Assembly (NCBI GenBank): GCA_014898425.1 | Contig: RCSZ01000005.1 | Location: 2,072,501-2,136,500 of the forward strand | Length of the DNA: 64,000 bases | From: Botryotinia globosa | Lineage: Eukaryota; Ascomycota; Leotiomycetes; Helotiales; Sclerotiniaceae | Reading direction: 5' to 3' | Part shown: one piece after another, positions 2,285 through 63,306 of the stretch | Position numbering within the stretch: the first letter of the stretch is position 1 | How the letters are laid out: the number at the start of each line of letters is the position of its first letter | Position numbers and translations under genes: made by a program | The notes under the pieces: generated by a model | Database searches by the model: none | Told to the model about the DNA's origin: nothing | Seen by the model: the letters and a program-made list of their open reading frames with translations, nothing else

Positions 2285-5200
2285 ATGGCTCCATCAAGAG
2301 TTCCTCAAAAGCGAATCTTAGGTGAAGCAAAGAATATTCAACAAAGCAATATCCCCTCATCTCCTCCAACTGGGGCAAAGAAACGAAAGTTAGAACCAGT
2401 TGCATCATCACCAGCAGCAGTGCGATTCAAGAGTTCACAAAATGGTCCAAGGGGAAAGCTGGCTTCTAGCCAGCCTAGTCATTTTGAATCGGAAGTGCTG
2501 GAAAAAATGACACAGGATATGGAAAGTTTGAAGAAGAATAATTCAGAAAAAGATCAAGAATGGGCAAGGCCGAGCCTGTCAGACTTCAACCCTGAGGTTG
2601 ATAATTTAATCTTTCAGCAGATCGAATGTGAAGAAGGTACTTATGACGGAGGAAAAGCGACTGTGAAATTGTTTGGTGTTACTGAGGTAAAGTTCATTCC
2701 AATTGCTGTCAAGCCCATAACTAATATCACATACAGACTGGTCACTCGGTTATGCTACATGTAAAAGACTTCCTTCACTACCTATACGTTGCCGCTCCAG
2801 TTAGTTTTACGCATAAAGATTGCGAACCGTACAAGATGTTCTTGGATTCACAAGTTGGAATGCACACGCCTGCCATCAATTCAGTATCGGTTGTACTACG
2901 AGAGAATTTATACGGATTTACGGGAAACAAACAGCATGCATATATTAAGATTACAGTTACGGACCCCAAATACATCAACAAAGTTAGGACAACTATCGAG
3001 GAGGGCAAAGCAAACTGGAAAGGAATGTGGAGGAATGATGGAAATGGTATTTTGACTTTTGATAGCATTCAATATGTGTTACGATTTATGGTCGATGTCA
3101 AGGTGTGTTCCTTTGCTCTTTTCATTTCCCACCTCGTTTTCCCCTCTCATATGGCATCTCCTACCTCACTTTTGCTTTTAACACATCTAATCAACATCAG
3201 ATTTATGGCATGTCATGGGTTGAAGTTGAAGCAAAGAAATACGAAATAGTTCCAGAACACAATAGACAATCGAATTGTCAAATCGAAGCCGTAATGACAT
3301 ATCGAGACTTAATTGCGCATAAGCCCGAAGGGGAATGGGCGAAAATGGCACCTCTACGTATTCTATCTTTTGACATTGAATGTGCTGGTCGCAAGGGTGT
3401 CTTTCCGGAAGCAAATCAGGATCCTGTTATCCAAATTGCCAATATTGTTACTCGATACGGAGAGAAGAAACCATTCGTACGAAATGTCTTTTGTCTTGAC
3501 ACTACTAGTCTGATCGTCAATACACAAATTCACGAATTCAAAAAGGAGGAGACGATGTTATCGAAATGGAGAGACTTTCTTGAAGAGGTAGATCCAGATA
3601 TCATCATTGGTTATAACATTGCCAATTTCGATTTTCCATATCTCCTCGATCGAGCCGATCACTTGAAGATCAAGAACTTCAGTCAGTGGACTCGATTGAA
3701 GTCTATCCACTCTCAAGCTAAAACTTCCAACTTCTCCAGTAAGCAAATGGGTAACAGGGATACGAAAGCTACCAATACTAATGGACGACTTCAATTGGAC
3801 TTATTACAACTTGTCCAGAGAGATCATCAACTTCGAAGTTATACGCTCAATTCCGTTTGTGCACAATTTCTGGGTGAGCAAAAGGAAGATGTTCATCACA
3901 CTATGATCACGGAATTATTCAATGGAACCCCTGAGTCTAGACGAAGATTGGCTGTATATTGTTTAAAGGATGCTTTTCTACCTCAACGTCTAATGGATAA
4001 ACTTTCATGTTTAGAAAATTATACGGAAATGGCTAGAGTCACAGGTGTTCCTTTCAATTTTCTTCTATCTCGTGGCCAACAAGTCAAATTCATTAGTCAA
4101 CTGTTTCGAAAAGCTTTAGAACAGAAATTGGTCATTCCTAATCTATCATCCAACTCATCTGAGGAACAGTACGAAGGTGCCACTGTCATTGAACCTACTA
4201 GAGGATACTACAGTGTCCCAATTGCAACCCTGGATTTTGCTTCTCTATACCCAAGTATTATTCAAGCGCATAATCTTTGCTATACTACATTACTCAAGAA
4301 AGATGTTGTGGAAGCTCTCAAACTTGAGAAGGATGAAGATTATATCGTTACGCCAAATGGAGATATGTTCGTCACAACCAAGCAACGAAAGGGTCTTCTG
4401 ACGCAAATTTTGGAAGAATTGTTAACAGCAAGAAAACAAGCTAAAAGAGAACTTGCTGTTGAAACCGATCCTTTCAAGAAGGCTGTGCTCAACGGTCGAC
4501 AACTTGCCCTGAAAATTAGTGCAAACAGTGTGTACGGTTTGACTGGTGCCACTGTCGGCAAGGTACCTTGTTTACCAATTGCTAGTAGTACCACAAGTTA
4601 TGGTCGTCAAATGATTGAAAAGACCAAAGCAGAAGTTGAGGCAAAATACACCATCGCTAACGGTTATTCTCATGATGCTCAAGTCATTTATGGTGATACC
4701 GATTCAGTCATGGTTAAATTTGGTGTAAAAGAATTGGCAGAGGCAATGAAATTGGGAGAAGAAGCTGCACAATATGTTTCTTCGAAATTCATCAAGCCGA
4801 TTAAGTTGGAATTCGAAAAAGTGTATTACCCATACCTTCTCATCAATAAGAAGAGATATGCCGGTCTTTACTGGACAAATCCTGATAAGTATGATAAGAT
4901 GGATACAAAGGGTATTGAAACAGTTCGTCGTGATAATTGTCGGTTGGTTCAGAATGTCATCGAAACAGTACTGAGAATGATCTTGATCGATCAAGATGTT
5001 CAAGGAGCACAAGAGTAAGCTTTTATCACTTCCTAATTTTTCGAAGTTATAACTAACATACTCGTTTAGCTATGTGAAAGATACCATCTCCGATCTTCTT
5101 CAGAACAAAATCGATATGTCAAAACTTGTCATCACCAAAGCCCTCGCAAAAGCCGATTATACCGCCAAACAAGCTCACGTAGAACTAGCTGAGCGTATGA

Positions 5201-17888: not shown

Positions 17889-18732
17889 CTAAGCACGGAA
17901 CTTGGCACCGATGGATCTCTTGGTGGTAGCTTCGGTAGCATTACCGGCAGCACCAGCGGCTGAAGCACCAGCGGTTGAAGCACCAGCCATCTGGAAAGCG
18001 GCGACACCACCGAAAGGACCAGCGCCCGATGGGTTAGCAAGCTTGACCAAGCAGACATTCTCTTGACCACCGACGGATCCAGTGCAGGACATGCCTGCTG
18101 GCATGGAGACGGCGATGGGGTAGTCCTCGTTGACGTTCTTGGCACGCTTGACGATACCCATGTTGACGAGAGATCTCATAACGAGGGAACGTTGCTTGGG
18201 TGCGGCGATATTACCCTTGCTACCTGGTACTTGAGTGGTAACCTTGGCTTGGGTACCTTGAGAGAAGGCACCGGTACCAGTTGGGTCGACGATGGCAGAG
18301 TATGGTCCAGCTCCATCAGTGGTGACGATGTGGATAGTTCCACTGAGCTGACCCCCATCGGAAACTTGAGGAAGGGTGGAACCGGAAGCGGCCATGACAG
18401 CAGTCATGTCAGCCATGGTGTTGGCACCAGCCTTTGTCTTTCCGAGACCGTCGGTAGCGGCGTTCTTGCTGTTGAAGACAGTGGTGTCGACCTCAGTTTG
18501 CTTGTTGGTTCCGGCACCAGGGATGGTGGCACCTTGGATACCGAGACCAGTGGTGTTTCCTCCCATGTCACCAGTCTGAAATAATGAGTTAGTATGAATA
18601 ATTGGAAGTGGAGATGATGAAAGAAGAATCATCAGATGAGAAGAGATGAGATAGAGTACTAACCATGACTGCGATCTTGCCATGGGCGGCAACGAGAGGG
18701 ATGATAGCGGCGACGGCGATAGTATAACGCAT
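17889..18732 (-). CDS. Secreted Gas1/Egh16-like (appressorium-type) protein
   Basis: Exons 18732-18664 and 18575-17889 join in phase 0 to 251 residues. Residues 1-16 (MRYTIAVAAIIPLVAA) form a clean signal peptide, and cleavage would leave His-Gly-Lys at the mature N-terminus. The body is Gly/Ala/Thr-rich (MGGNTTGLGIQG, PGAGTNKQTEVDTTVF, TDGAGPYSAIVDPTGTG) with the CTGSVGGQENVC pair near residue 200, matching the Egh16H/Gas1/Gas2/Mas family. In rice blast, Gas1 and Gas2 are expressed in appressoria and promote penetration; Egh16 is from barley mildew. The Ala-rich C-tail (AGASTAGASAAGAAG) could be a linker. The intron lies just after the signal peptide codons. Role in host penetration is by family analogy. 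Family identification is by motif and composition. Confidence 0.85.
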
Positions 18733-31002: not shown

Positions 31003-31126
31003 TATCTATTATCTATTATCTAGTATCTAGTATCTAGTATCTAGTATCTAGTATCTAGTATCTAATATCTAATATCTAATATTTAACATCTAGTATTCAA
31101 TATCTAGTATCTAGTATTTATAGTAT
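31003..31126. repeat. Heptamer minisatellite, left arm (TATCTAG/TATCTAA)
   Basis: About 17 tandem copies of a 7-base unit: TATCTAT, then TATCTAG, then TATCTAA, ending in ATTTAACATCTAG and further TATCTAG. It abuts the MITE-like element on its left side. Confidence 0.9.
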
Positions 31127-31554: not shown

Positions 31555-31797
31555 TTAGTATTTAGTATTTAGTATTTAGTATTTAGTATTTAGTATTTAG
31601 TATTTAGTATTTAGTATTTAGTATTTAGTATTTAGTATTTAGTATTTAGTATTTAGTATTTAGTATTTAGTATTTAGTATTTAGTATTTAGTATTTAGTA
31701 TTTAGTATTTAGTATTTAGTATTTAGTATTTAGTATTTAGTATCTAATATCTAATATCTAATATCTAATATCTAATATCTAATATCTAATATTTAAC
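31555..31797. repeat. Heptamer minisatellite, right arm (TTTAGTA/TCTAATA)
   Basis: About 26 near-perfect tandem copies of TTTAGTA (31555-31740) followed by about seven TCTAATA units and then ATTTAACAT. The same terminal block, TCTAATA units plus ATTTAACAT, also occurs left of the MITE at about 31061-31089, so the two arms are related by duplication. Confidence 0.92.
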
Positions 31798-50069: not shown

Positions 50070-52357
50070 TTAATAATTTTTTAAAAATGAATACAATTAT
50101 ATATTTTAATTCATAATTCATTTTAGATATAGTATTCTTTTAGCTCTATTTAGCTTTTATATTATTATTCTTTTTCTATTTAATATATTATTTTAATAAT
50201 TATTTTATTAATATTAATTAAATCTTTTAATATTTAATATATATTGTTTTTGATTATGATATCTGTAGGGTTTAACTTTTTATTAATTTATTTAATCTCT
50301 ATAATCTCTTTATTCTTATAGTATTGTTTTAAAGCTATAATATCGATTAAAAGCTATTTCTTTATATTTGTATTAAGTTTAGTCAATAGGTTATATAATG
50401 ACTTTGAATTTATATATAATATAAATAATATTGGCTTTTTAGATTTGAGAATAGTATTGATAATGCTTTTAATAGTAGTTTTAATATCAAAGCTTAGAAT
50501 CAATGTATATAATTCAAAAGCTAATATACTTCTAATAATTCTTTTGTATTTAACTAATGTTTAATATATAATATTAATATTATTATACTTATTTATTAAA
50601 TAGATTATATAGTTAATTTGTAATAATAAATCAGTATTATTAACGAATAATATATTGATAAAAATAATTAATTTAATGAAATTTATATCTAGAGATATAA
50701 ATGTAAATCCTTTTTTCGGATTGTTTATTTGCTATTTGATAATTTTATTGAGTTTGTTTATATTTTCTTTTTTTGAATCTATTATTTAAGCAATAATAGA
50801 AAAATAGTAAAATACTTTTGATTGATATATAATTGTAATATATACTTTTCTTATATATTGAATAATATATTGATTCTTTGAAATAATATTTCTTTGAACT
50901 TTTCTTTTTGTTTTATATATATCAATATTTCTGGTTGTAATTATTCTGATATTATTATATTATTTCTTTTGATTAAAATAGATCTTATTATTTTTAAAAA
51001 TGATTAAATAGTTATTAAATCTAAGTGAATAGTTTTTTGTGAATTACTTTCTATTTTTGATTATAAAATTAGCTTTACCTAATTATTTTTATTTTAAATA
51101 TATAAATCTCTTATTTACAATTATAAAAGTATTATTGATTTAAAGTTTTATAATATCAATACTATCGATTGAATAGAATAAGTAAGAGTTATATATAGAT
51201 TACATTATATTCAGCTTATCTTTATAATAATTGTAATAAATTCTAAATTAATGATTTCCTATTTCAGGGATATTATATAAAGGTTTTATAATATATAGAA
51301 TATATCTATCCTCAAATCCAATCTCTTTTAATATTTCTATATAAATGGGTTTATTCAAAGTTGTAATTGATTGAGTATATGTTTGTATAATATCCTGCAA
51401 ATAGATTTGAATATATTTATTTGATATTTATAGAATAATAGCAAATATAAGAATAATATACTGGCTGATATATTGAATAATAGGTGATTGTATTAAAACA
51501 ATGATTTTATTTTTATTTTGATATATCTGAATTATTAATTATAATTTTGTATATATTCTATTAATACTCTTTTCTTTCATTTTATTAATAAAATGTAATT
51601 TAAAGAATCTTATTTTGAATAGAATATTATCTTTTGAAACAATCTTAAAGATTTTACTTTTTATTAATTTATCAATTTCTTTATATTACAATTCTATATA
51701 TTTTATAAATATATTATTTTATAAGAATATAATTAATTATAATGATTTTGTAATATATTCTTTATCAATATTTATTATATTGATTATTTTAGTTAAATTG
51801 CTTTTTATATAATAATATAATTATATATTTAATTATATTATTAATAATAATATTTAGAATTATAATATCTTTATATATAATATATCAATAATTATAATAT
51901 CATTATTATTATTATTTATATAATTATTCTTCGATTTTATTTCTTTAGATTTTATATAGAAGAATTATATAAATATAAATTGAAATTTAATTAATCTATT
52001 GAAAAATTTCATTTTATATATCTTCCTATTTATTTCAATTAAAGTATACAATCCAATCTATTTGTTTAATATATTATTATTTTTTCTCTTTTTTTATATT
52101 AAAACTTCTGAATTTAATAATAGAATAAGAATAGATATTATAAATAATCTATTCCTTAATTTTAATATCTTTATAATTTATCTTTTAATTCGAATATAAT
52201 ATACTTCTATTATAACTTTCTTTATAATTTTTATATATTAAATAATTATTACAATTAATAGATTAATATTATTTAATCTGGAATATATCCTATAAACCAG
52301 TAATATAGAAATAAATCTATTTGATCTTGTTATATTATTTATAGTTTTCATTATTAT

Positions 52358-52576
52358 TTAAAAAATTATTATTTTAATTAGATTATTATTTTCAAATTCT
52401 TTTATTAAAATCTTATATATATAATGTAATAAATAATAATATCTTTCGATAATATCTATAAAGTTATATATTTCGATAAATATATTTTTAATAATAATCG
52501 ATATAGATTTTATATTTTGAATAAACTTTTTATTTACAAAATTCTTTTCAATATTATAAATAATATAATCTAACAA
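52358..52576 (-). pseudogene. Remnant of copia integrase region
   Basis: A 72-codon open stretch in the minus strand with DIIERYYYLLHYIYKILIKE, corresponding to the ERYHxxLRRxYxI-type helix of copia integrases. Downstream of the Pol remnant at 53.1 kb in element orientation, as expected. Inactive. Confidence 0.6.
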
Positions 52577-53056
52577 TTCAATATATATATTAATTTAATA
52601 TTTCCTAAAACTATTGAATATATATTTAGTAAAAACATTTTCAAAAAATCAAACTATTTAATAATATATTGCTTTATCAATAATATATAAAATCAAATTG
52701 CTTATAATATATATAATATTAATGTAAATAATATAATTAAATTCAATATCTTTTAATAAAATAAATCTGAAATATTTTGATAACTTGCTATACATTTGAT
52801 AATATTTGTAGTATTTGATAAAATATTTAATAATATTATTACTTTTATTATAATTTGTTTATTATAATATATTATAAAAACATTGTATCAATAAGTAACT
52901 GAATTATCAATGTAGATGTTATAGCTCTATAATTATTAAATAATAATTATTCTAATAAATCGATTCTTAAATGAATTGATTTATATTCACTTTCTATATT
53001 AAAAATATATACTTATATTTTCTAATAATAGAATATTTATTTTTTAATATAATAAA

Positions 53057-53239
53057 CTAATTAATAATATTATTATAAAATACTTTAAGATAATCTATAT
53101 CTTCAAGATTTAATAAAAATGGAATATTAGTATTTATAATATGAAAATCGATATCTTTAAACAATATAATAACTCGAAATGATTTTATTAATATTATAAT
53201 CCCCTTTTCAAAATATATATTCGCAATCTCTATTATCAA
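53057..53239 (-). pseudogene. Remnant of copia Pol (protease/GAG-pre-integrase region)
   Basis: A 60-codon open stretch in the minus strand. VIILFKDIDFHIINTNIPF and LLNLEDIDYLKVFYNN follow the characteristic FHxxNTxxPFLLxLxDxDxLxVxxNN pattern of fungal copia Pol proteins, with replacements expected from C-to-T/G-to-A change. Inactive fragment. Confidence 0.75.
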
Positions 53240-55473
53240 TAAATTGTATTTAATTGAGCAAATCCACTTCCATATATAATATTATCCAATTCCAATTATT
53301 AACTTTTCTATATATATTATATCAATATATATACCAAAGAATTCTTTATTTATATAATTTATATAAAAAACATTTATTATATTTTCTACAAATAAAATTA
53401 TTTCAATAAGATTTCTAGTTATTATATATAATATTATATTAAACAACAGTTAATTAAATATTTCCTAATTATTAATAAACTCAGAATTTACAAAAAATAT
53501 TTTATCCATATTATCTTCAATATTGAGATCCACAAAAAACAGATTTATTTCAATCTCTAAATCAAACTTTATATTGATAATCTTTCTTTTATATTCGATT
53601 ATCTATTAATTGTAATATTTATTAAATACATTATTACTATTATCTTTGATTTTCTCTTTATACTTATATCTATTCTTATTTTGTTTCTTTTTAGAATATT
53701 TTATTAATCAATACTCTTTTTTTATATATATCTAATAATGATTATATTAATTAAAAGAATTTGAATATTATTGTTTATTATATAAATTATTTCTAAAATT
53801 ATTATTATTTTTAGAATTTCTGAAATTATTTCGATTATTGCTATAATTATTATTGCTATGGAATTTTCTATTAATAAATAATATTATATTTTCTTTATTC
53901 TTATATAATCTCTTCTATATATTAATAGATTATTATAATTGATTAATTAAATCAAATATCTCTTTCTTAAAATTAAAATAAACTAGATTATATATTTCTA
54001 TATTTTTATAAATAAATATAAGCTTATTATAAAGATAGAATATTTATTATATAATAAAATTAAATTGATATTATAATATATATAATTATTTAATTATGAT
54101 TATAAAATATTCATTAAACAGCTTGTTTTTATACTCTTTTTTAATCGATTTTAAAATAATATTATTCCATTTTGATAATATATTTCATTAATATTTATTT
54201 CCTTCAAAATTATTTCATATATAAATATAAAACTTTTTAAATATTAATAATAATAAGTTATAATTAATATAAAAAAATTGAAATATATTCTTTTTGAATA
54301 TAATCAAAAATACTTTATAATATATATCCATAGGTACCTTTATATATTATAAGATTTTATAAAATATTGAAAGTTTGAAATCGAAATTATTATTATTTCT
54401 ATTATATTTCTTATTATTAATATAGAATTTTGATAAATTAATAAAAGATTATATATTGAAATATAATATTAATATTTTATTCTTTTGAGATTTATAATCT
54501 TTATTGTTTTTATTACTATTGTTTTTCTTATTATTAGGGTTTTCTATATTGTTATTTTTATTATATTTATTTTTATTATTTTTATTTATATATTTGAAAT
54601 CGTTTTTAATAAATTTATAAATAATTCTGGATTTGAATTTAGATTTCTTGATATTAATATCTTTTAAAGTTTTTTGAATTTATACTTTTGTTTATTTATT
54701 AATAATAATTTTATATAATTATTCGAATAAAATTATAAATACTTTAATATTTATTTTTGATAAATATACTTCTTAAATACATAATATTATATATAGCTTC
54801 TATATATAAATCTAATAGATTTTCGGAAATTGTATAACTATAAATATTCTGAAATTATAATAAAAGATTTCTATCAGATTATTATTATTGATATTCTTAT
54901 AATTATACTATTTATATTTGAATTTGATATATTTGATAAACTTTTTATTATTAATAACAATAGCTCTTATATTATCTAATATTGTTTTTAATAAATTGAA
55001 CTATTTCTTATACTTTTTCTCTTCCTCCTTTATATATATATTCTTATTAATAATATCCTTAATAATTAGAGTAATATCACTTTCCAATATATTTGTATAT
55101 ATAGATAAAAATATTTCGAAAATTATTATAGATATATATATATTTGTATATATAAAAAAATCTTTTATAAATATAAAGAGTAATAAAGGTTTTTGTTTTA
55201 TTTAATATAATATATAATATAAAGATGAATATATAATAGATATAAAGTCGATTTATTACATTTAACAAAATCGAACTTTTTGAATATATCTTTTCAATAC
55301 AATTATCCGAAATATATTTTTTAGTATTATAAAAAAAAATAGTATATTATACCTAATACAATAATATTTTCTCTATAATCTCTTTAGAATTTCTATTAAT
55401 TTTAAATATTATATAAAAACACCTAATACTTTTAATAGAATCTAAGGCCTTAATTTGTAATATCACTAATTAA

Positions 55474-55643
55474 TATTAATATCAACTTGATTGATATAAA
55501 TATAAATATTTAGTCCTATATGATTGTATTCATTCTTGATTATTATTAATTATAGAAAACTAGATATTAAATATATAGGGAAACGCTAGTGTAACGCTAG
55601 TTAATACAATGCCCTTTTTGATCACATGATCGATGTCCCGACA
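55474..55643 (-). repeat. Retroelement LTR, right (5' LTR in element orientation), 170 bp
   Basis: Starts TATTAATATCAACTTGATTG, the mutated form of the left LTR start, and ends GATCGATGTCCCGACA with unmutated G/C at the outer edge. In element orientation it contains CCCTATATATTTAATATC, a TATA-like segment, as expected of a 5' LTR promoter. Confidence 0.93.
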
Positions 55644-55913: not shown

Positions 55914-58900
55914 AAGAAATGGTTAGTCTTTCTTGTCTTCCTAATAGAATTGAAATTTTGATCAGCTAACTCTCAAATTCTCAATCGACACGAGTATCGG
56001 AGTAGGTATCTATCGAGGCAATTAGGATGGCGGACGGTGCCAACATATTTCGAGGCCTATTTTGTGAAAATTCATTTATTGGAGTTTGGTGAATCGGATA
56101 GTTGTCAAGAGGATCGTTCCGAGTAAACCCTTAGAAAGCTTTCGAGGAGAAAATGATTAGTTAGATAGTAATAAAGAAGGATTTTTACCCCCAAGTTCAG
56201 TTTGAAGTTCCAAAAGTGCCTGAAAGATGTTTAGAAAAATTGAATGCAAATGGATAATGCTGTATTATCACTCAATACATCTTTAAGCCTCAGTGTGAGT
56301 AGAGTCACGGGAAACTTAGTATTGTGTATTATAGGGAGTCCCATGATTAAATTTCATAAGTGATCATCAGAATTCTGTAGAGCTTAGGAGAAATTGATGG
56401 TGCCAAGGCTTTTGTGCTTTTGTATATCTTAAGGAAATCATGTGTTTTTCCTCGAACAGAGAGAAAGCTTTTCATTAGTATCATATGATTGTATGGCTAG
56501 TCTGGAGAAAATGGGCCTACAAGCCTCTCCATTGTATTCTAAGGTCTATTCAAAGAAGCTTCGAATGAGTGTGCACAGCATAAGTCTCGACTGAAACCCC
56601 AGGAGAGACCAATAATTCATGGGTGTTGTTACTACCAAGCAGATAATCAGATGTCAACGTAAATCAGTCCAGCAGCACCGCTTCCATCATCATTATCAAT
56701 CCCTTCACAGAAATTCCGAAATCTTCCTTCAACAAGACCTTTGTCGCGATTCTCTTCAAGAGAGCATCGTAAGCTAATTTCGAATACAGGAAGAAATCTA
56801 GGATGGTATATAGTATATATGACCTTCCCAAAAACACATAACATCATCGAATCATCACAACAATATTACCCGCAGATTTGCAACAATGATCACAGAGAAG
56901 GAAAAGATTTCTTCTTCGAGTGCCAGCATAAAGCGAGCATCTCAATGAAAAAAAGTTTCCCACGTCACCTGAAGGCAGTGTAATACCAAGAACATGGTTT
57001 TGATAACAAAAATTATATGATTTTGTGGGGGAAGAAGAAAAGAAAAAGAAGAGGAAAACGAAGGCGAGAAGTCCGATCTTTATAGAAAAACACTATGATC
57101 TGTGCTAGGTCAATCAAGGGCTCTAGTGTGGAAAAAGTGAGCAAACAGTGCAAACAGTGTCGTTCTTGTTGTTTAGGGAAGGAACGACGAGGGGGTTGGG
57201 GTGGAACATTGTCGATAAGCATTGCGACCTTGAACTGGGAAGATCGGACAGCAAAATTGGGAGAGGAGTCATGTCCAGATAGTGGAAATTGGGGAAGGGA
57301 ATACTTAGGATTTGTTAATGAAGAAGGAAATAGCAATGATGATAGCTCAAGATACACACTTCAGTATCATCGACGATTGATGTGAGGAATATCAATCTTC
57401 AAGGCTAAATGTGAAAGAATAGAGACACTACTGAGGAGATATTTTGATATTTAACCTCTCATTATACGAATCAAAAAGTGCAGAAATCATCTAAACACAT
57501 CCCAGGCTTTTCGTCTATATGTCCTTTTACAAGCAACGATGAATCCGAAACCAATCTGAGCACTTCGATCATTCTATTGAGAAGTATCATCAATACCCAA
57601 CTACTCACATCAACTAAGGTCTTTCCGGATCAAACTTATAGCCCGAGGGGATGAACTCTCGAAGGTTTGACTTGCTATTTTAGGAATATTCAACAACAGC
57701 CTGCCTAGGCAGGTAAACATCTCAAATATTTACTTAGATCAACACCGATTACAACACAACGATAACACATCAAATCTCCTGAATGATATCTCAAGAGTAG
57801 TCTACTTCTTCAGCTATAATTCTTGTAGCAATTATCCGGAATCTTTAGTCCTAGATCTTCCACGAGGAAAGTGTACCTCAATACCATCCAACTGATCAAG
57901 AATCCCCTTGGAAGGGAAGAGATGATTGGAAAAATAATACACAAATACTTCCAAGTCCAGATAATGCAAGAGTAAACGTGGAGATAACGTGACATTAACA
58001 GTAAACAGCAGAGAAAGGAAGGAACGTCCTCATCATGGAAACAGGAACGCCGATTAGCCGAGCTCAGTGAAAGTCTACCACCCAGCAGGCAGGAAGTAAC
58101 TTTAATGAATATACTGAACCATTGATGATGAACTGAGAGGGTTTCATCTTACTTTACTTACAAATATCTAGGTAGGTTCTACCCAAGACAGCTTTGAAGC
58201 TTCGAAGAAATGAAATGCCTTCCTAAATTATTACTTCGACCTCTAATATTCCGCTATATGTAGCAGAAGTCCAGCTCTCTGGGATAGGACACAAACCATT
58301 TCTTCCCATAGAAACCACGTTGTGAACAGGCTACAGTCATACCACCGGTATCTATCTAGCTAGCCACAATGTGTTTCTTTGATTGGAGAGACAAAAAATG
58401 CTCTAGATGTTCTCTGAAGTATTCTCTATCTCTAGACTGACTATTACGGGAAGAAGCGGGCTGAGCAAAAGTAAATTCAAACAATAATTTCCTTGATAAT
58501 TCTTCGAGATGAAATCTTTCGAGCAAGTGCAGCTAGACTCTAAGAAAGTCGAACTATGACTTCTTTCTGTTGAGGAAATCACTCAAACACATGCCAAGCA
58601 CGAGGAGGGTTTGGAAATTCCTCCCTTCATATTTTTCTAGTATGAAAGGTTCCAAGATACAAGTCAGAAAGAATCGGAGAGTCCGGCCTTTGGTTACAGA
58701 GAGAATAGGCAGAAGGGCCAGAATCCTTTTGATGTGAAAAGTAGGTTTCAGTTTTCCCGACCCAGTGTAAGGCTTTGACTTTGAGTTACAAGGTGAAGTT
58801 AACTCTTCGGGTAATATGTAAAAGAACAAAGCATTCATTGAGTAAAGTTTTCAGAAATGGAAATGTTGAGGTTATTCCTGAAGTTTCCGACATGGGAATC

Positions 58901-59647
58901 CCGCCGAACCAAATCATTACATTACCTCACACGCCAGACATGATATTTCGTGCATAGTACTTGAAGAAAAACTTCTAGACCCTTCCATCAATTGCTTCTA
59001 GAACATTTCCTCTTCAATCCTTTGACCGGAGGTCCCAAATGAACAATGTTAAGGAGACAATACTAAGGGGCTCGCTTAACATTCTTTGGGTTTCATATTT
59101 CTTTGATACTTTTCGCGAGAAATTTAGGCTTGAATAGCTTCATGAATTTTCTCACGATCTTGGGATATGGTAATGACTTTGAAAAGTCTTTTGATGAAGT
59201 GGAATTTTGTAGGGCGTCGCCGATAAGTTTTTGATTTCTAGTTTGATGGATTTTTGATGGGAGAAATGATTTCTGGTGCTGAGATTGGTCGATTGATGTT
59301 CATTTCCTTGTTGGTTTCCTGGGGTTGAAGAACAATGTTCAGATTCGAGGACAATATCAAGGGTGAGTAGCTTCAATTTGACGTACGATCTTCTTTCAAT
59401 CTATAGCAAGGCCTGTTTTCCACTTGGAATCGGATCCTCCGAATCTCCTTGTTGAATGAGTGATTTGAAATGAAAATGGGGATAACAATTTCCTTCGAAA
59501 AGTCTTCTAGAAGCCAGAATCGATGCCTATTCTCTGGGCTGTTCTCTCTCCTTTACAGACTCCCTTTCCTTACTATTTTAGTGGTCCAGCACTCAGTATT
59601 CTTTGTTTCTCCTTGAACAATTCCACAAATCATCCTCAAGAATTCCC

Positions 59648-59655
59648 TATAAATA
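59648..59655 (+). promoter_or_regulatory. TATA box of the GPGRGC-repeat gene
   Basis: TATAAATA about 110 bases before the ATG, followed by a pyrimidine-rich tract (59656-59697, CTTCTTCC-type) that is the usual fungal transcription start zone, then an A-rich leader ending ATCAATCAAAATG, a good initiation context. The arrangement suggests strong or regulated expression. Confidence 0.65.
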
Positions 59656-59763
59656 CCCCTCCTCCAACCCTTCTTCCTAGACTTTTCTTCTTCACCAAAT
59701 TACATTCACTCATATACAATCTTTTTACCAAAAAACAAAACCCACCCCAATAAATCAATCAAA

Positions 59764-59934
59764 ATGCAAGGACCAGGACGCGGATGCACTCTCCAAAAGG
59801 CCGGACCCGGCCGTGGATGCAATGTTCAAAAGGGACCAGGACGTGGATGTAACGTCCAGAAGACCGCCGGACCAGGCCGTGGATGCAACATCCAACGTGG
59901 CCCAGGCCGTGGTTGCAACGTTCAGAAGGCATAA
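59764..59934 (+). CDS. Small basic protein of five GPGRGC repeats, unrecognised
   Basis: ATG to TAA encodes 56 residues, nearly all of them five copies of GPGRGC(N/T)(V/I/L)Q(K/R), two extended by A or TA. Cys8, 19, 29, 41 and 51 are spaced 10-12 residues apart. There is no Asp, Glu, His or aromatic residue, so the protein is strongly basic. No signal peptide, membrane segment or dibasic KR cleavage site is visible, so a secreted or RiPP-type precursor is not indicated. The repeats differ largely at synonymous positions (Gly GGA/GGC/GGT, Pro CCA/CCC, Arg CGC/CGT, Cys TGC/TGT), the pattern expected if the protein sequence is selected. A TATA box and A-rich leader precede it and a perfect hairpin overlaps the stop codon. 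Metal or nucleic-acid binding are open possibilities; I do not recognise the family. Confidence 0.75.
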   Translation: MQGPGRGCTLQKAGPGRGCNVQKGPGRGCNVQKTAGPGRGCNIQRGPGRGCNVQKA

Positions 59935-59955
59935 ATCATCTCTTCTGAGATGATT
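59934..59955 (+). promoter_or_regulatory. Perfect hairpin at the stop codon
   Basis: AATCATCTC-TTCT-GAGATGATT: a 9-base perfect stem with a 4-base loop. Its first base is the last base of the TAA stop of the GPGRGC gene. A bacterial-type terminator makes no sense here, so an mRNA-stability, readthrough or processing role is possible. Confidence 0.6.
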
Positions 59956-61374
59956 TTGGAGGAGCGATAGAGCACACTGGATATACGACTTTCATTATTT
60001 TCTTTTCGAGACACGCATCGCTAGATACGCTTGCGAATAACAAACACGTTTAACGACGACGAACCGGAAAGAAATAGATGAGAGATATTCGAGACAAACT
60101 TTACACATCTCTATCATTTTGCACCAATTTTAGCAATCTCCTCAATGCTGCGCACACGAACGTTCACTTAGATGGGTTTTCTAGAAAAATAGACACTTTA
60201 TAAATAGAAAAAGATTTTATCGGCAGTATTGGACTTCCCATGGTCCTCAATACACACCACCACATTCATTACGGTCATAACACATTTTGGCCTCAACTAT
60301 CACCCTTCGATTATCGGTATTTCATACCAACCCCCTTTTTACACTTCAACACACATAATCGACAATCGACGATGTGATTGATCACTCATATCGTTTTTTC
60401 GCACACATTGCGGTTATAGGGGCGAGGATTCTTTTTCGGACAAGCTTGATGACTTCTTTCGTTTCGCAATGGAAGAGGGAATTTCGGGAAATTTTCTGCC
60501 GCTCGATATTTCTTGGTGGGACGTTGCTGTTCTTTTGGCATGGTGACGCGCCCTTTTATACTGGAGGGAATCAAACTCTTATTTTGCTTTCCCTATATTA
60601 TGACTTCTTTTTTGATGGTGAAAATGTGATGTGATGTGATATGATGATGTATGTTCTGTGAATATGAATTGAATCTTGATAAAGAGAGCTTCATATATCG
60701 GCTAAATCAAGGAGGTATCACAATTATGACTTGGACTTGTAACGCCCAATGTTACTCCAACATTTCGGCTAATAACAGCCGTCACTATATGCCCCGACGG
60801 TTTATTCCTACGAACTTCTGGAAAAAGTTTCTGGGTCAAAAGTTCATGAAAAGGGAACATTATCAACGTTGTACATGGCAGAAAAGATAGCATTCTATGT
60901 TTTGCTGTCTTGATGATATTCAGGACACTTCGTATCTCAACTGGAAGTACGTAGCAATGCAGCGAAGAGAAATGGAACTGTTCAAGGAATTAATGTGGTA
61001 TAAGATGGTCTGAAATTGGATATTAAGGGAACTCTCCCGTGAATTTCCTTAGTCGACACCGATATGGCATCATATAATCTCAAGGTACAGATTGAATTTT
61101 TTTTGCGATAATAGGAAGTGAAAGATAAGTGAAATGAGAGACTCATAGCATGCGTGGAAGTTACCTTTGGTGAGTGCTTAGATCAAACCTGTGGTGTCAG
61201 GCTTGACAACTAAAAAAGTATCGTGTAAAACATTCATTGATTCATTAATTTCTTCATATTTTTCATAATTCATCGTAGAACCCAGGTACCAATTTGGCAG
61301 CCCCTTCAACCTGTTATTTTTCCCTCAGAAAGCCTCCCGTTGAAATCCCTTCTCTCCTGCCATCACAAGGCAAT
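59935..61374. other. Intergenic region, 1.4 kb
   Basis: 3' UTR and flank of the GPGRGC gene and 3' flank of the cyanase gene. ORFs at 60374-60634 (+) and 60651-60890 (+) have no motifs. No repeats. Confidence 0.5.
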
Positions 61375-61981
61375 TTAAAATCTAGAGAATGGCAACCACT
61401 TTCCTCTCAAAGTAATAACGGCCCAGTTGTTCCCCTGCTCGTCGGTCTCCTTCTCGACCTTGGTACTGAAAGAAATGGCACTCATAATTCCATCTCCAAA
61501 CTTTTCGTTCATAACGGCCTTGTAAGCATATCCATAGTTTTGGACAATTTCATACAATCGGTAGATGAGAGGTTCAACTGGGGGCATAGGACCAGCACGT
61601 CCACGATCTGGGAAACCTCCAAGCTCCGCCTCGAGTTTCGATTGTGGTACGTCGAGGATTTGGGAAAGCTTCTCAATGTCGGCGGCAGAGGCTTGCGATT
61701 GGCCGTAAAAGAGTGCAGCAACAGCAACTTCGGAGCGGCCAAGTTGGTTGGCGATGGATTCGAAGGTTAAAGCTTTGGTGGCTTTAGCCTCAAAGAGGGT
61801 TTTGGAGGAGGTAGGAAGACGGTCGACAAGTGTGCTCTGCGTTGAATGTGTTAGTGGCGAAGAAGTCTTGCCAACTCTTGCCAACTCTTCTCATATGGTG
61901 GTGGTTGGACTCAGAAGCGGGGTATTTTCGAGTGAAAGGTATACTTACATCGAGCGTTGCAATCTTGGTTTGATCAGCCAT
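61375..61981 (-). CDS. cynS: Cyanate hydratase (cyanase)
   Basis: Exons 61981-61949 and 61836-61375 join in phase 0 to 164 residues. Cyanase converts cyanate plus bicarbonate into two CO2 and ammonia, detoxifying cyanate and supplying nitrogen. The N-terminal helical domain ([20 protein letters not shown], about 36-55) is followed by the C-terminal catalytic fold. The three catalytic residues line up with bacterial Arg96, Glu99 and Ser122 at a constant offset of 8: Arg104 and Glu107 in YRLYE, and Ser130 in GIMSAISF. The C-terminus is GKWLPFSRF, typical of the family. The intron (112 bases) contains a short direct repeat. Start ATG begins [11 protein letters not shown]. The full catalytic set is intact. 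Confidence 0.95.
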
Positions 61982-63306
61982 TTTTGTAGATTTTGGTGAG
62001 GATTGTATAACTTGTTTGCATTTGATTGAAATAATTGAACAAAAAAAAAACAATCTGAGATTGAAGTGATGTTTATATCTTAAGCTTCTTAGCTGTTCTA
62101 ACAATGGTATCCATGAAGCTTGGCCTCGGATAAATTGTCATCACAATTCCGGGACAACTCCGAATCCCGCCCAGCAACAATAATCGGTCGTCGTCCTTGG
62201 TTTTTGGCCATGATATCACCAACAAAGATCCCGAGGTTGCTCCCGACCTATGTCTTGAGCGGAGAAGTGTTGGAATGGAAACCAAGATCTTCATCTCCAA
62301 AGTGTCACATGAGTGTCTCTTTGTTTGCTGACCACGTGATCACCCCTTTTATCATCTAGTCAAACATGCACCATAAAGTGCAATTGTCATGATTACAAGA
62401 GCAGATTGAAGATTACTACCTACTACAACATGGTTATGAGGTCGAAAGTTTGACTGAGAATAATTCTGCAACCTCCTGTATGTGGCTTTACTGTCATTAG
62501 GTATCCGTTAGTAGCGGCCGTCAACATACCATATTTACATGACGGAAGCGGCATTGTCAAACTCGTCGATAATCATGGACGAGACCATCGAAATTGGATT
62601 CCGTTTGTGTTTTTCTGATAAGAGAGAGTATATTGGTTGTGTAGAGTGCGAAAAGTTCCCTCCATGAAGCAAAGAGTCCAGGATTAAACCATGGGTATCG
62701 TTCATTGATTGTAACCTTCCTGTCTCTCATGACGAACGTTGAGAGCTTATAAGCTCACACCAATCAAATTATGCCTTATTTCTGTTGAGGTTTCATTGGG
62801 ATAATGTTTGCCATATCACATGAAAAGCAAACCGATTTTTTCGATTAGCTGATGCCTTTCCAAGGGGGACTGTAACTCTGTTGCCATGCTACGTGCATCA
62901 TGCAAACACGCGTGCGAAATCCAATTCCAACCATTTCGAATTAATCAATAATTTCAAGCAATTGAAATATATTAATCTGCATTATGTGCACCGAAATCCT
63001 TATCTGGCATACCAAAGGGTCTAAAAAAGCCAGGGAGAACCTTGATTTTTAAGACTGTGCGCTGTGCAAGATTTTCTTTTAAGACGAAAAGTCACACGCT
63101 TCTGTACACAGAGATGATTCTTCTCATGCTAGCTTCAATCTACCATCAGCAAGTTTTTTCTTATACAAATTGAGCTTTGTAGCCAAAGGCAATATAATCT
63201 TCAATTGATTTAGAACCCTCCTGACCTCTTCAATTTCAGTGTCCTCCCATCAACTTTCTCAGCCGGAAGATAGAAAATAACAAAGCGAAGAGAAAAACGA
63301 CACAGG
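61982..63306. other. Intergenic region between divergent genes
   Basis: 1.3 kb holding the promoters of the cyanase gene (-) and the SET-domain gene (+). Small ORFs at 62073-62300 (-) and 62120-62359 (+) show nothing. No repeats. Confidence 0.55.

What the first reader, a model, noticed from the sequence alone, without database searches (positions are those of the whole stretch)
59764..59934. Undescribed-looking 56-residue protein of five GPGRGC repeats
The sequence shows an intact ATG-to-stop frame that is almost entirely GPGRGC(N/T)xQ(K/R) repeats with five regularly spaced cysteines and no acidic or aromatic residue. Repeat copies differ mainly at silent codon positions, which implies the peptide, not just the DNA repeat, is under selection. 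It has a TATA box and a good start context, so it is probably well expressed. I know no family with this unit.
Basis: partly seen in the sequence, partly recalled or inferred. Interest (0 to 1): 0.75.

Follow-up and report, generated by a model that had tools for sequence, protein, structure and literature searches.

The report
Orphan fungal five-repeat cysteine microprotein
A fungus related to grey mould carries a tiny gene for a positively charged protein built from five near-identical ten-residue units, each with one cysteine; the units have kept their amino acids while their silent DNA letters changed, so the protein itself seems to matter, and no relative or description of it was found.

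Summary
Window 59764-59934 (+) is an intact 56-codon frame of five GPGRGC(N/T)xQ(K/R) units. All 10 third-codon columns vary between units, against 4 of the other 20; pN/pS is 0.15. Its synonymous codons match EF1A/EF2/H3-type genes (rank 2 of 199 ATG frames; 0 of 5000 background draws reach it). It has a TATA box and a 104-nt leader with one G and no ATG. It is single-copy in its 45.7-Mb genome, probably of Sclerotiniaceae near Botrytis. No credible homologue in Pfam, PDB sequences, 5.8 billion proteins or the paper library. New lead, post hoc: two of the window's three triple heat-shock-type elements lie upstream. It meets no tested definition of metallothionein, RGG box or KEX2-processed repeat protein. 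The best mechanism, a stress-induced soluble multi-thiol peptide buffering metal or oxidants, is inferred, not shown. No fungal DNA collection could be searched, so orthologue dN/dS and transcripts remain untested.

The parts
59764..59934 (+). 56-aa reading frame (ATG to TAA), apparently single exon
   Evidence: translation; no ATG in 59640-59763 before the start, no GTRNGT donor in 59640-60100, in-frame stop at 59650
59770..59799 (+). unit 1 GPGRGCTLQK
59803..59832 (+). unit 2 GPGRGCNVQK
59833..59862 (+). unit 3 GPGRGCNVQK
59869..59898 (+). unit 4 GPGRGCNIQR
59899..59928 (+). unit 5 GPGRGCNVQK
59648..59655 (+). TATA box TATAAATA
   Evidence: 17 plus-strand copies in the window, most in the AT-rich block at 50-55.5 kb; downstream of 55.6 kb only this one and 60199
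59660..59763 (+). putative 5' leader, 1 G in 104 nt, no ATG, ends ATCAAA before the ATG
   Evidence: the transcription start itself is inferred; 12 other plus-strand stretches with at most 1 G per 100 exist in the window
58875..58887 (.). triple heat-shock-type element TTCCTGAAGTTTC
59139..59151 (.). triple heat-shock-type element TTCATGAATTTTC
58996..59003 (.). two-unit heat-shock-type element TTCTAGAA
59505..59512 (.). two-unit heat-shock-type element TTCTAGAA, about 135 bp before the TATA box

Best explanation
It is a real, compact, single-exon nuclear gene for a 5.6-kDa soluble cationic repeat protein, not a non-coding minisatellite (about 0.9). It is probably strongly expressed, at least under some condition (about 0.75), perhaps under heat-shock-factor-type control (about 0.4). 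It most likely works as a multivalent thiol reagent inside the cell. Each unit is a flexible GPGRG turn that presents one cysteine, followed by a short strand-prone NVQK stretch. Five such thiols on one small chain would bind soft metal ions or be oxidised or cross-linked under stress, while the ten Arg/Lys keep the chain soluble or on polyanions (about 0.35). Shown: the frame, the unit conservation, the codon bias, the leader and the heat-shock-like motifs. Inferred: transcription, translation, induction, thiol chemistry.
For: All 10 third-codon columns vary but Gly-Pro-Gly-Arg-Gly-Cys and Gln are invariant in all five units, pN/pS 0.15. JC-corrected dS between units is about 1.3 against dN 0.10, and the units are roughly equidistant (5-9 differences), so constraint has been long-lasting. 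Codon log-odds +0.24, within the range of 7 conventional high-expression genes (0.13 to 0.48) and above all 8 genes of the ordinary set taken from the window (-0.80 to -0.08); 0 of 5000 background draws reach it; rank 2 of 199 ATG frames of at least 45 aa. TATA box, G-poor leader and clean start. Upstream 900 bp: 4 TTCNNGAA (0.55 expected) and 2 triple elements (0.04 expected); reached by 0.7% and 0.2% of 3000 dinucleotide shuffles. Triples occur in 3 of 10 HSP70-family loci and 1 of 34 other loci. No hydrophobic stretch and no KR/RR/KK site, so a soluble cytosolic or nuclear product is expected.
Against: No RNA, ribosome or mass-spectrometry data. No homologue in a database that does hold Leotiomycete proteins, although dS over 1 between units predicts that relatives should share it. 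The five units are related copies, so the codon test overstates independence; single-unit P values are 0.02, 0.10, 0.03, 0.0008, 0.003. The heat-shock lead is post hoc: 17 recalled patterns were scanned, four of them heat-shock variants; the nearest triple lies about 600 bp before the ATG; by 4- and 5-unit scores the region is not outstanding in the window (10 of 12, tied with others; 11 of 15 against a best of 12), although by 6 units it holds the best site (14 of 18); the HSP70-family locus L045 has a longer element (17 of 18); both HSP20 loci lack triples and two other places in the window have as many two-unit elements. No CC, CxC or CxxC pair, the usual metal-binding spacing. No Ace1/Mac1-like or Zap1-like site is present upstream.
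Confidence: 0.42

Rival explanations
1. A small RG-type nucleic-acid-binding peptide: the five GRG motifs and the polycationic, acid-free chain bind RNA or another polyanion, and the cysteines tune assembly by redox.
For: Five GRG motifs, no acidic or aromatic residues, charge about +9. FMRP and ICP27 bind RNA with RGG boxes of two RGG triplets nine residues apart (PMC2735946, passages read), a spacing close to this one.
Against: No RGG triplet, RG motifs are 10-12 residues apart and the residue after RG is always Cys, so the defining triplet is absent. Invariant Cys and Gln are not explained.
Confidence: 0.25
2. A structural or self-assembling peptide: the C-N-V-Q stretches stack as a short beta meander and the cysteines cross-link chains, for example in conidia or sclerotia.
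For: The single-sequence AlphaFold2 model puts a strand on each unit (E8-11, 20-23, 29-33, 42-44, 51-55); five cysteines per chain.
Against: Model confidence is low (pLDDT 56, pTM 0.31) and cannot be relied on. No secretion-signal-like stretch; nothing in codon usage or promoter points to a structural role.
Confidence: 0.15
3. A coding repeat without present function, or a very recent species-specific gene on the way in or out.
For: No homologue found; single copy; orphan genes are common in fungi (recalled).
Against: pN/pS 0.15 with unit dS above 1 needs long constraint; codon usage is that of highly expressed genes.
Confidence: 0.1
4. A non-coding minisatellite or regulatory RNA whose frame is accidental.
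For: Other frames are also open through the repeat; no transcript evidence.
Against: Codon-phase variation in this frame, the only one with pS above pN and no stop; start just before unit 1 and stop just after unit 5; codon bias. Rfam gives only one chance-level hit in 57000-62500, E 0.95, outside the frame.
Confidence: 0.05

Closest known systems
Fungal metallothioneins (e.g. yeast Cup1, Crs5)
   Same: Very small, several cysteines, few or no aromatic residues, no secretion signal; yeast CUP1 is also under heat-shock-factor control (all recalled).
   Different: Cysteines are 10-12 residues apart with no CC, CxC or CxxC; strongly basic; no profile match.
RGG/RG-box RNA-binding segments (e.g. 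Shadoo, FMRP)
   Same: Gly/Arg-rich, acid-free; some RGG boxes have two triplets nine residues apart (PMC2735946 passages).
   Different: No RGG triplet; RG is always followed by Cys; strict 10-residue unit.
KEX2-processed repeat proteins and dikaritin-type RiPP precursors
   Same: Tandem near-identical short peptide units in a fungal protein.
   Different: No signal-peptide-like stretch and no KR, RR or KK between units.
GPGXX elastic repeats (flagelliform silk; recalled)
   Same: GPG turn repeated at regular spacing.
   Different: Unit carries Arg, Cys and a polar stretch; 56 residues only; no match found.

Membership tests
Metallothionein | Clustered cysteines (CC, CxC, CxxC; recalled definition) | tested here: not met
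   Cys at 8, 19, 29, 41, 51; none of these patterns
Metallothionein | Match to a metallothionein profile | tested here: not met
   Pfam: the only line is Neuroparsin at E 4.9, below its cut-off
Metallothionein | Metal binding or metal induction | not testable with these tools
   needs protein or RNA
RGG-box RNA-binding protein | Closely spaced RGG triplets | tested here: not met
   0 RGG; definition read in PMC2735946 passages
RGG-box RNA-binding protein | Binds RNA | not testable with these tools
   needs assay
KEX2-processed repeat protein | Signal peptide | tested here: not met
   highest Kyte-Doolittle mean over 9 residues is -0.22; no signal-peptide program was run; criterion from PMC6339444 passages
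KEX2-processed repeat protein | KR/RR (or KK) sites between repeats | tested here: not met
   none present
KEX2-processed repeat protein | Internal near-identical repeats | tested here: met
   five units
Heat-shock-factor target gene | At least one element of three alternating nGAAn units upstream (recalled definition) | tested here: met
   58875 and 59139
Heat-shock-factor target gene | Induced by heat | not testable with these tools
   no RNA data
Protein-coding gene under purifying selection | Excess of synonymous change between copies | tested here: met
   pN/pS 0.15 between units
Protein-coding gene under purifying selection | dN/dS below 1 between orthologues | not testable with these tools
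   no fungal DNA collection could be searched; the genome has no relatives here

The most novel reading that the evidence does not exclude
The founding member of an undescribed family of heat-shock-factor-controlled cationic thiol-ladder microproteins in grey-mould fungi: a 10-residue GPGRGCNVQK unit repeated to give evenly spaced thiols on a polycation that buffers metal or oxidants on RNA or other polyanions during stress, overlooked because annotation skips frames this short.
Probability: 0.13. Interest if true: 0.75.

Novelty: new variant of a known kind. Interest (0 to 1): 0.5.

Why it matters
Very short frames are often skipped in genome annotation (recalled). Here one shows selection at the peptide level, the codon bias of highly expressed genes and a possibly stress-type promoter, yet no annotated relative was found. 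If confirmed it adds a simple, fully repetitive cysteine unit that can be tested as a synthetic peptide, and shows that within-gene repeat comparison plus codon bias can find such genes without any homologue.

Tried and rejected
Paralogues: none by protein, exact unit pattern or DNA search of the own genome. The only other GPGRGC codon match, C4:285744, lies antisense to a 275-aa open frame and is taken as chance (the reversed-pattern control also gave 1).

Homologues of another length: a query three times as long gave one protein at E up to 10, P0122 (E 1.1), an unnamed metagenome frame that holds one EPGRGCTL stretch but no tandem array; rejected as chance (only the 7984 candidates sharing most words were scored). 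Lines to eIF3 subunit A in the PDB search (best E 0.0026, above the usual 0.001) were judged compositional without looking at the alignments. IMG/VR: 12 pattern stretches, none confirmed. Prokaryote genomes: 226 stretches, none confirmed.

Structure: single-sequence AlphaFold2, pLDDT 56; no fold search was run on it. RNA families: one chance-level line. Papers: GPGRGC in 3 papers, judged irrelevant from the listing only; GPGRG with fungal in 2 papers, of which PMC2735946 was read in passages and the other seen in the listing; GPGKGC in none. Seven further searches on neighbouring topics, not on the unit itself, were seen as listings with starts of abstracts, and from these PMC6981102 and PMC6339444 were read in passages. 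The species could not be named. Of the 17 promoter patterns the heat-shock variants and one StuA-like palindrome (counted on both strands: 2 seen, 0.23 expected) clearly exceeded expectation; CCCCT (2 against 1.36) and a CreA-like pattern (2 against 1.86) did so only slightly. The StuA-like site was not followed.

Full report
What is there. The frame at 59764-59934 on the plus strand is intact and encodes MQ followed by five units GPGRGC-[NT]-x-Q-[KR] with spacers A, none, TA and none, and a final A before the stop. The start codon begins six bases before unit 1 and the stop codon begins three bases after unit 5. Upstream there is TATAAATA at 59648, then a 104-nt stretch (59660-59763) with 38 A, 34 C, 31 T and one G, without an ATG, ending in ATCAAA before the ATG. 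No GTRNGT-type splice donor occurs from 59640 to 60100. The protein is 5.6 kDa, pI about 10.9, with no acidic or aromatic residue.

Is it coding? An open frame is weak evidence because three other listed frames also run through the array. Three better lines agree. First, codon phase: 10 of 10 third positions of the unit vary against 2 of 10 first and 2 of 10 second positions; pS 0.61, pN 0.093 over the ten unit pairs. In four of the other five frames pN exceeds pS; in the fifth (minus strand, offset 1) pS exceeds pN, but that frame has stops in two of five units. The units are roughly equidistant (5 to 9 differences), with JC-corrected dS near 1.3 and dN near 0.10, so there was no recent homogenisation and constraint was long. 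Second, codon choice: with pieces of EF1A, EF2, H3, GAPDH, polyubiquitin, ubiquitin-S27a and actin (identified by me from their sequences) as the high set and eight window genes as the ordinary set, the frame scores +0.24, inside the high range (0.13 to 0.48, each gene left out in turn) and above all eight ordinary genes (-0.80 to -0.08); 0 of 5000 draws from ordinary usage reach it and 8.7% of 5000 draws from high usage are as low or lower. It ranks 2 of 199 ATG frames of 45 aa or more in the window, behind the Egh16-like gene; the ordinary set comes from this same window, which pulls other window genes down. The units are copies of each other, so the overall P is too small; taken singly they give 0.02, 0.10, 0.03, 0.0008 and 0.003. 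Third, the leader and promoter anatomy above. I conclude that it is a real protein-coding gene, probability about 0.9.

Where it is. The genome has 45.7 Mb in 27 contigs. The nearest clear neighbour is a cyanase gene (Pfam PF02560) on the minus strand at 61375-61884, perhaps with a first exon up to 61981 (inference). No Pfam match was found in the three upstream frames tested, 57013-57357, 58554-58838 and 59523-59753. The gene sits about 4 kb downstream of an AT-rich block (GC 13% at 50.5-55.5 kb) but in normal-GC sequence.

Relatives. None found: own genome single copy; no candidate among proteins of 31-98 aa; none credible among proteins of about 92-294 aa, where only the 7984 candidates sharing most words were scored; Pfam, PDB sequence, IMG/VR and prokaryote contigs gave nothing credible. 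The protein database does hold Leotiomycete proteins, so either the frame is unannotated in relatives or it is absent from them. I ran no control with a known short fungal protein, so how well that database covers such frames is unknown. Unit dS above 1 predicts that the array predates the species, which makes non-annotation more likely than absence, but this was not testable: no fungal DNA collection could be searched and the genome has no relatives here.

Regulation lead. In the 900 bp before the TATA box there are four TTCNNGAA (0.55 expected from the window rate) and two of the window's three triple elements. Of 3000 dinucleotide shuffles 0.7% reach the first count and 0.2% the second. In 44 loci from the same genome (several overlap), triples occur in 3 of 10 HSP70-family loci (two of these overlap and share a site) and in 1 of 34 others; neither HSP20 locus has one. 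By longer scores the picture is mixed: at 4 units the region ties with others at 10 of 12, at 5 units it has 11 of 15 against a window best of 12, at 6 units it holds the window's best site, 14 of 18 at 58860; the HSP70-family locus L045 reaches 17 of 18, the HSP70-family locus L048 only 13. Four two-unit elements within 900 bp occur in 21 of 1262 sliding windows, in three clusters: one here, one with window starts 2701-3201, and one with window starts 59951-60151, just downstream of this gene. Since 17 recalled patterns, four of them heat-shock variants, were scanned, I treat this as suggestive, about 0.4.

How it may work. Gly-Pro-Gly-Arg-Gly-Cys and Gln are invariant; K/R, V/I/L and N/T vary conservatively. 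The chain has no hydrophobic stretch and no dibasic site, so a soluble intracellular peptide is expected. Nearly evenly spaced single thiols on a polycation fit a thiol or metal buffer or a redox cross-linker; the RG content fits a polyanion binder. The spacing lacks CC, CxC and CxxC, so it is not a metallothionein by definition, and it lacks RGG, so it is not an RGG box. It may still act like either. The low-confidence model (pLDDT 56) shows a strand per unit, which I use only to name a rival.

Papers. PMC6981102 (passages) on fungal copper handling says that metallothioneins act in S. cerevisiae and C. [quoted passage not shown] this speaks somewhat against a copper-metallothionein role. PMC2735946 (passages) gives the RGG definition and the nine-residue spacing. 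PMC6339444 (passages) gives the KEX2-repeat criteria. The open-library searches for the unit letters found nothing relevant in their listings; most subscription papers are not covered.

Verdict. The novelty is a new orphan repeat microprotein; function is open. Interest 0.5.

Noticed in passing
17889-18683 (-): Egh16-like gene (PF11327) with the strongest highly-expressed-type codon bias of the 199 ATG frames scored in the window.
   Followed up: partly
50500-55500: AT-rich block, GC 13%, with many AT-rich tandem repeats, next to normal-GC sequence; looks like a decayed repeat region.
   Followed up: partly
31003-31117 and 31555-31795: Long heptamer arrays (TATCTAG about 16 copies, TTAGTAT about 34 copies) in a 21% GC stretch.
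   Followed up: no
L038 (own genome C21:13007-14305): Actin-family match of 305 bits with five in-frame stops; from its sequence probably an Arp2-type gene with introns (recalled resemblance).
   Followed up: no
60199-60206: A second TATAAATA about 265 bp downstream of the stop codon, beside a cluster of two-unit heat-shock-type elements (window starts 59951-60151); no gene recognised there.
   Followed up: no
59111-59120: StuA-like palindrome in the upstream region, counted on both strands (2 seen, 0.23 expected).
   Followed up: no
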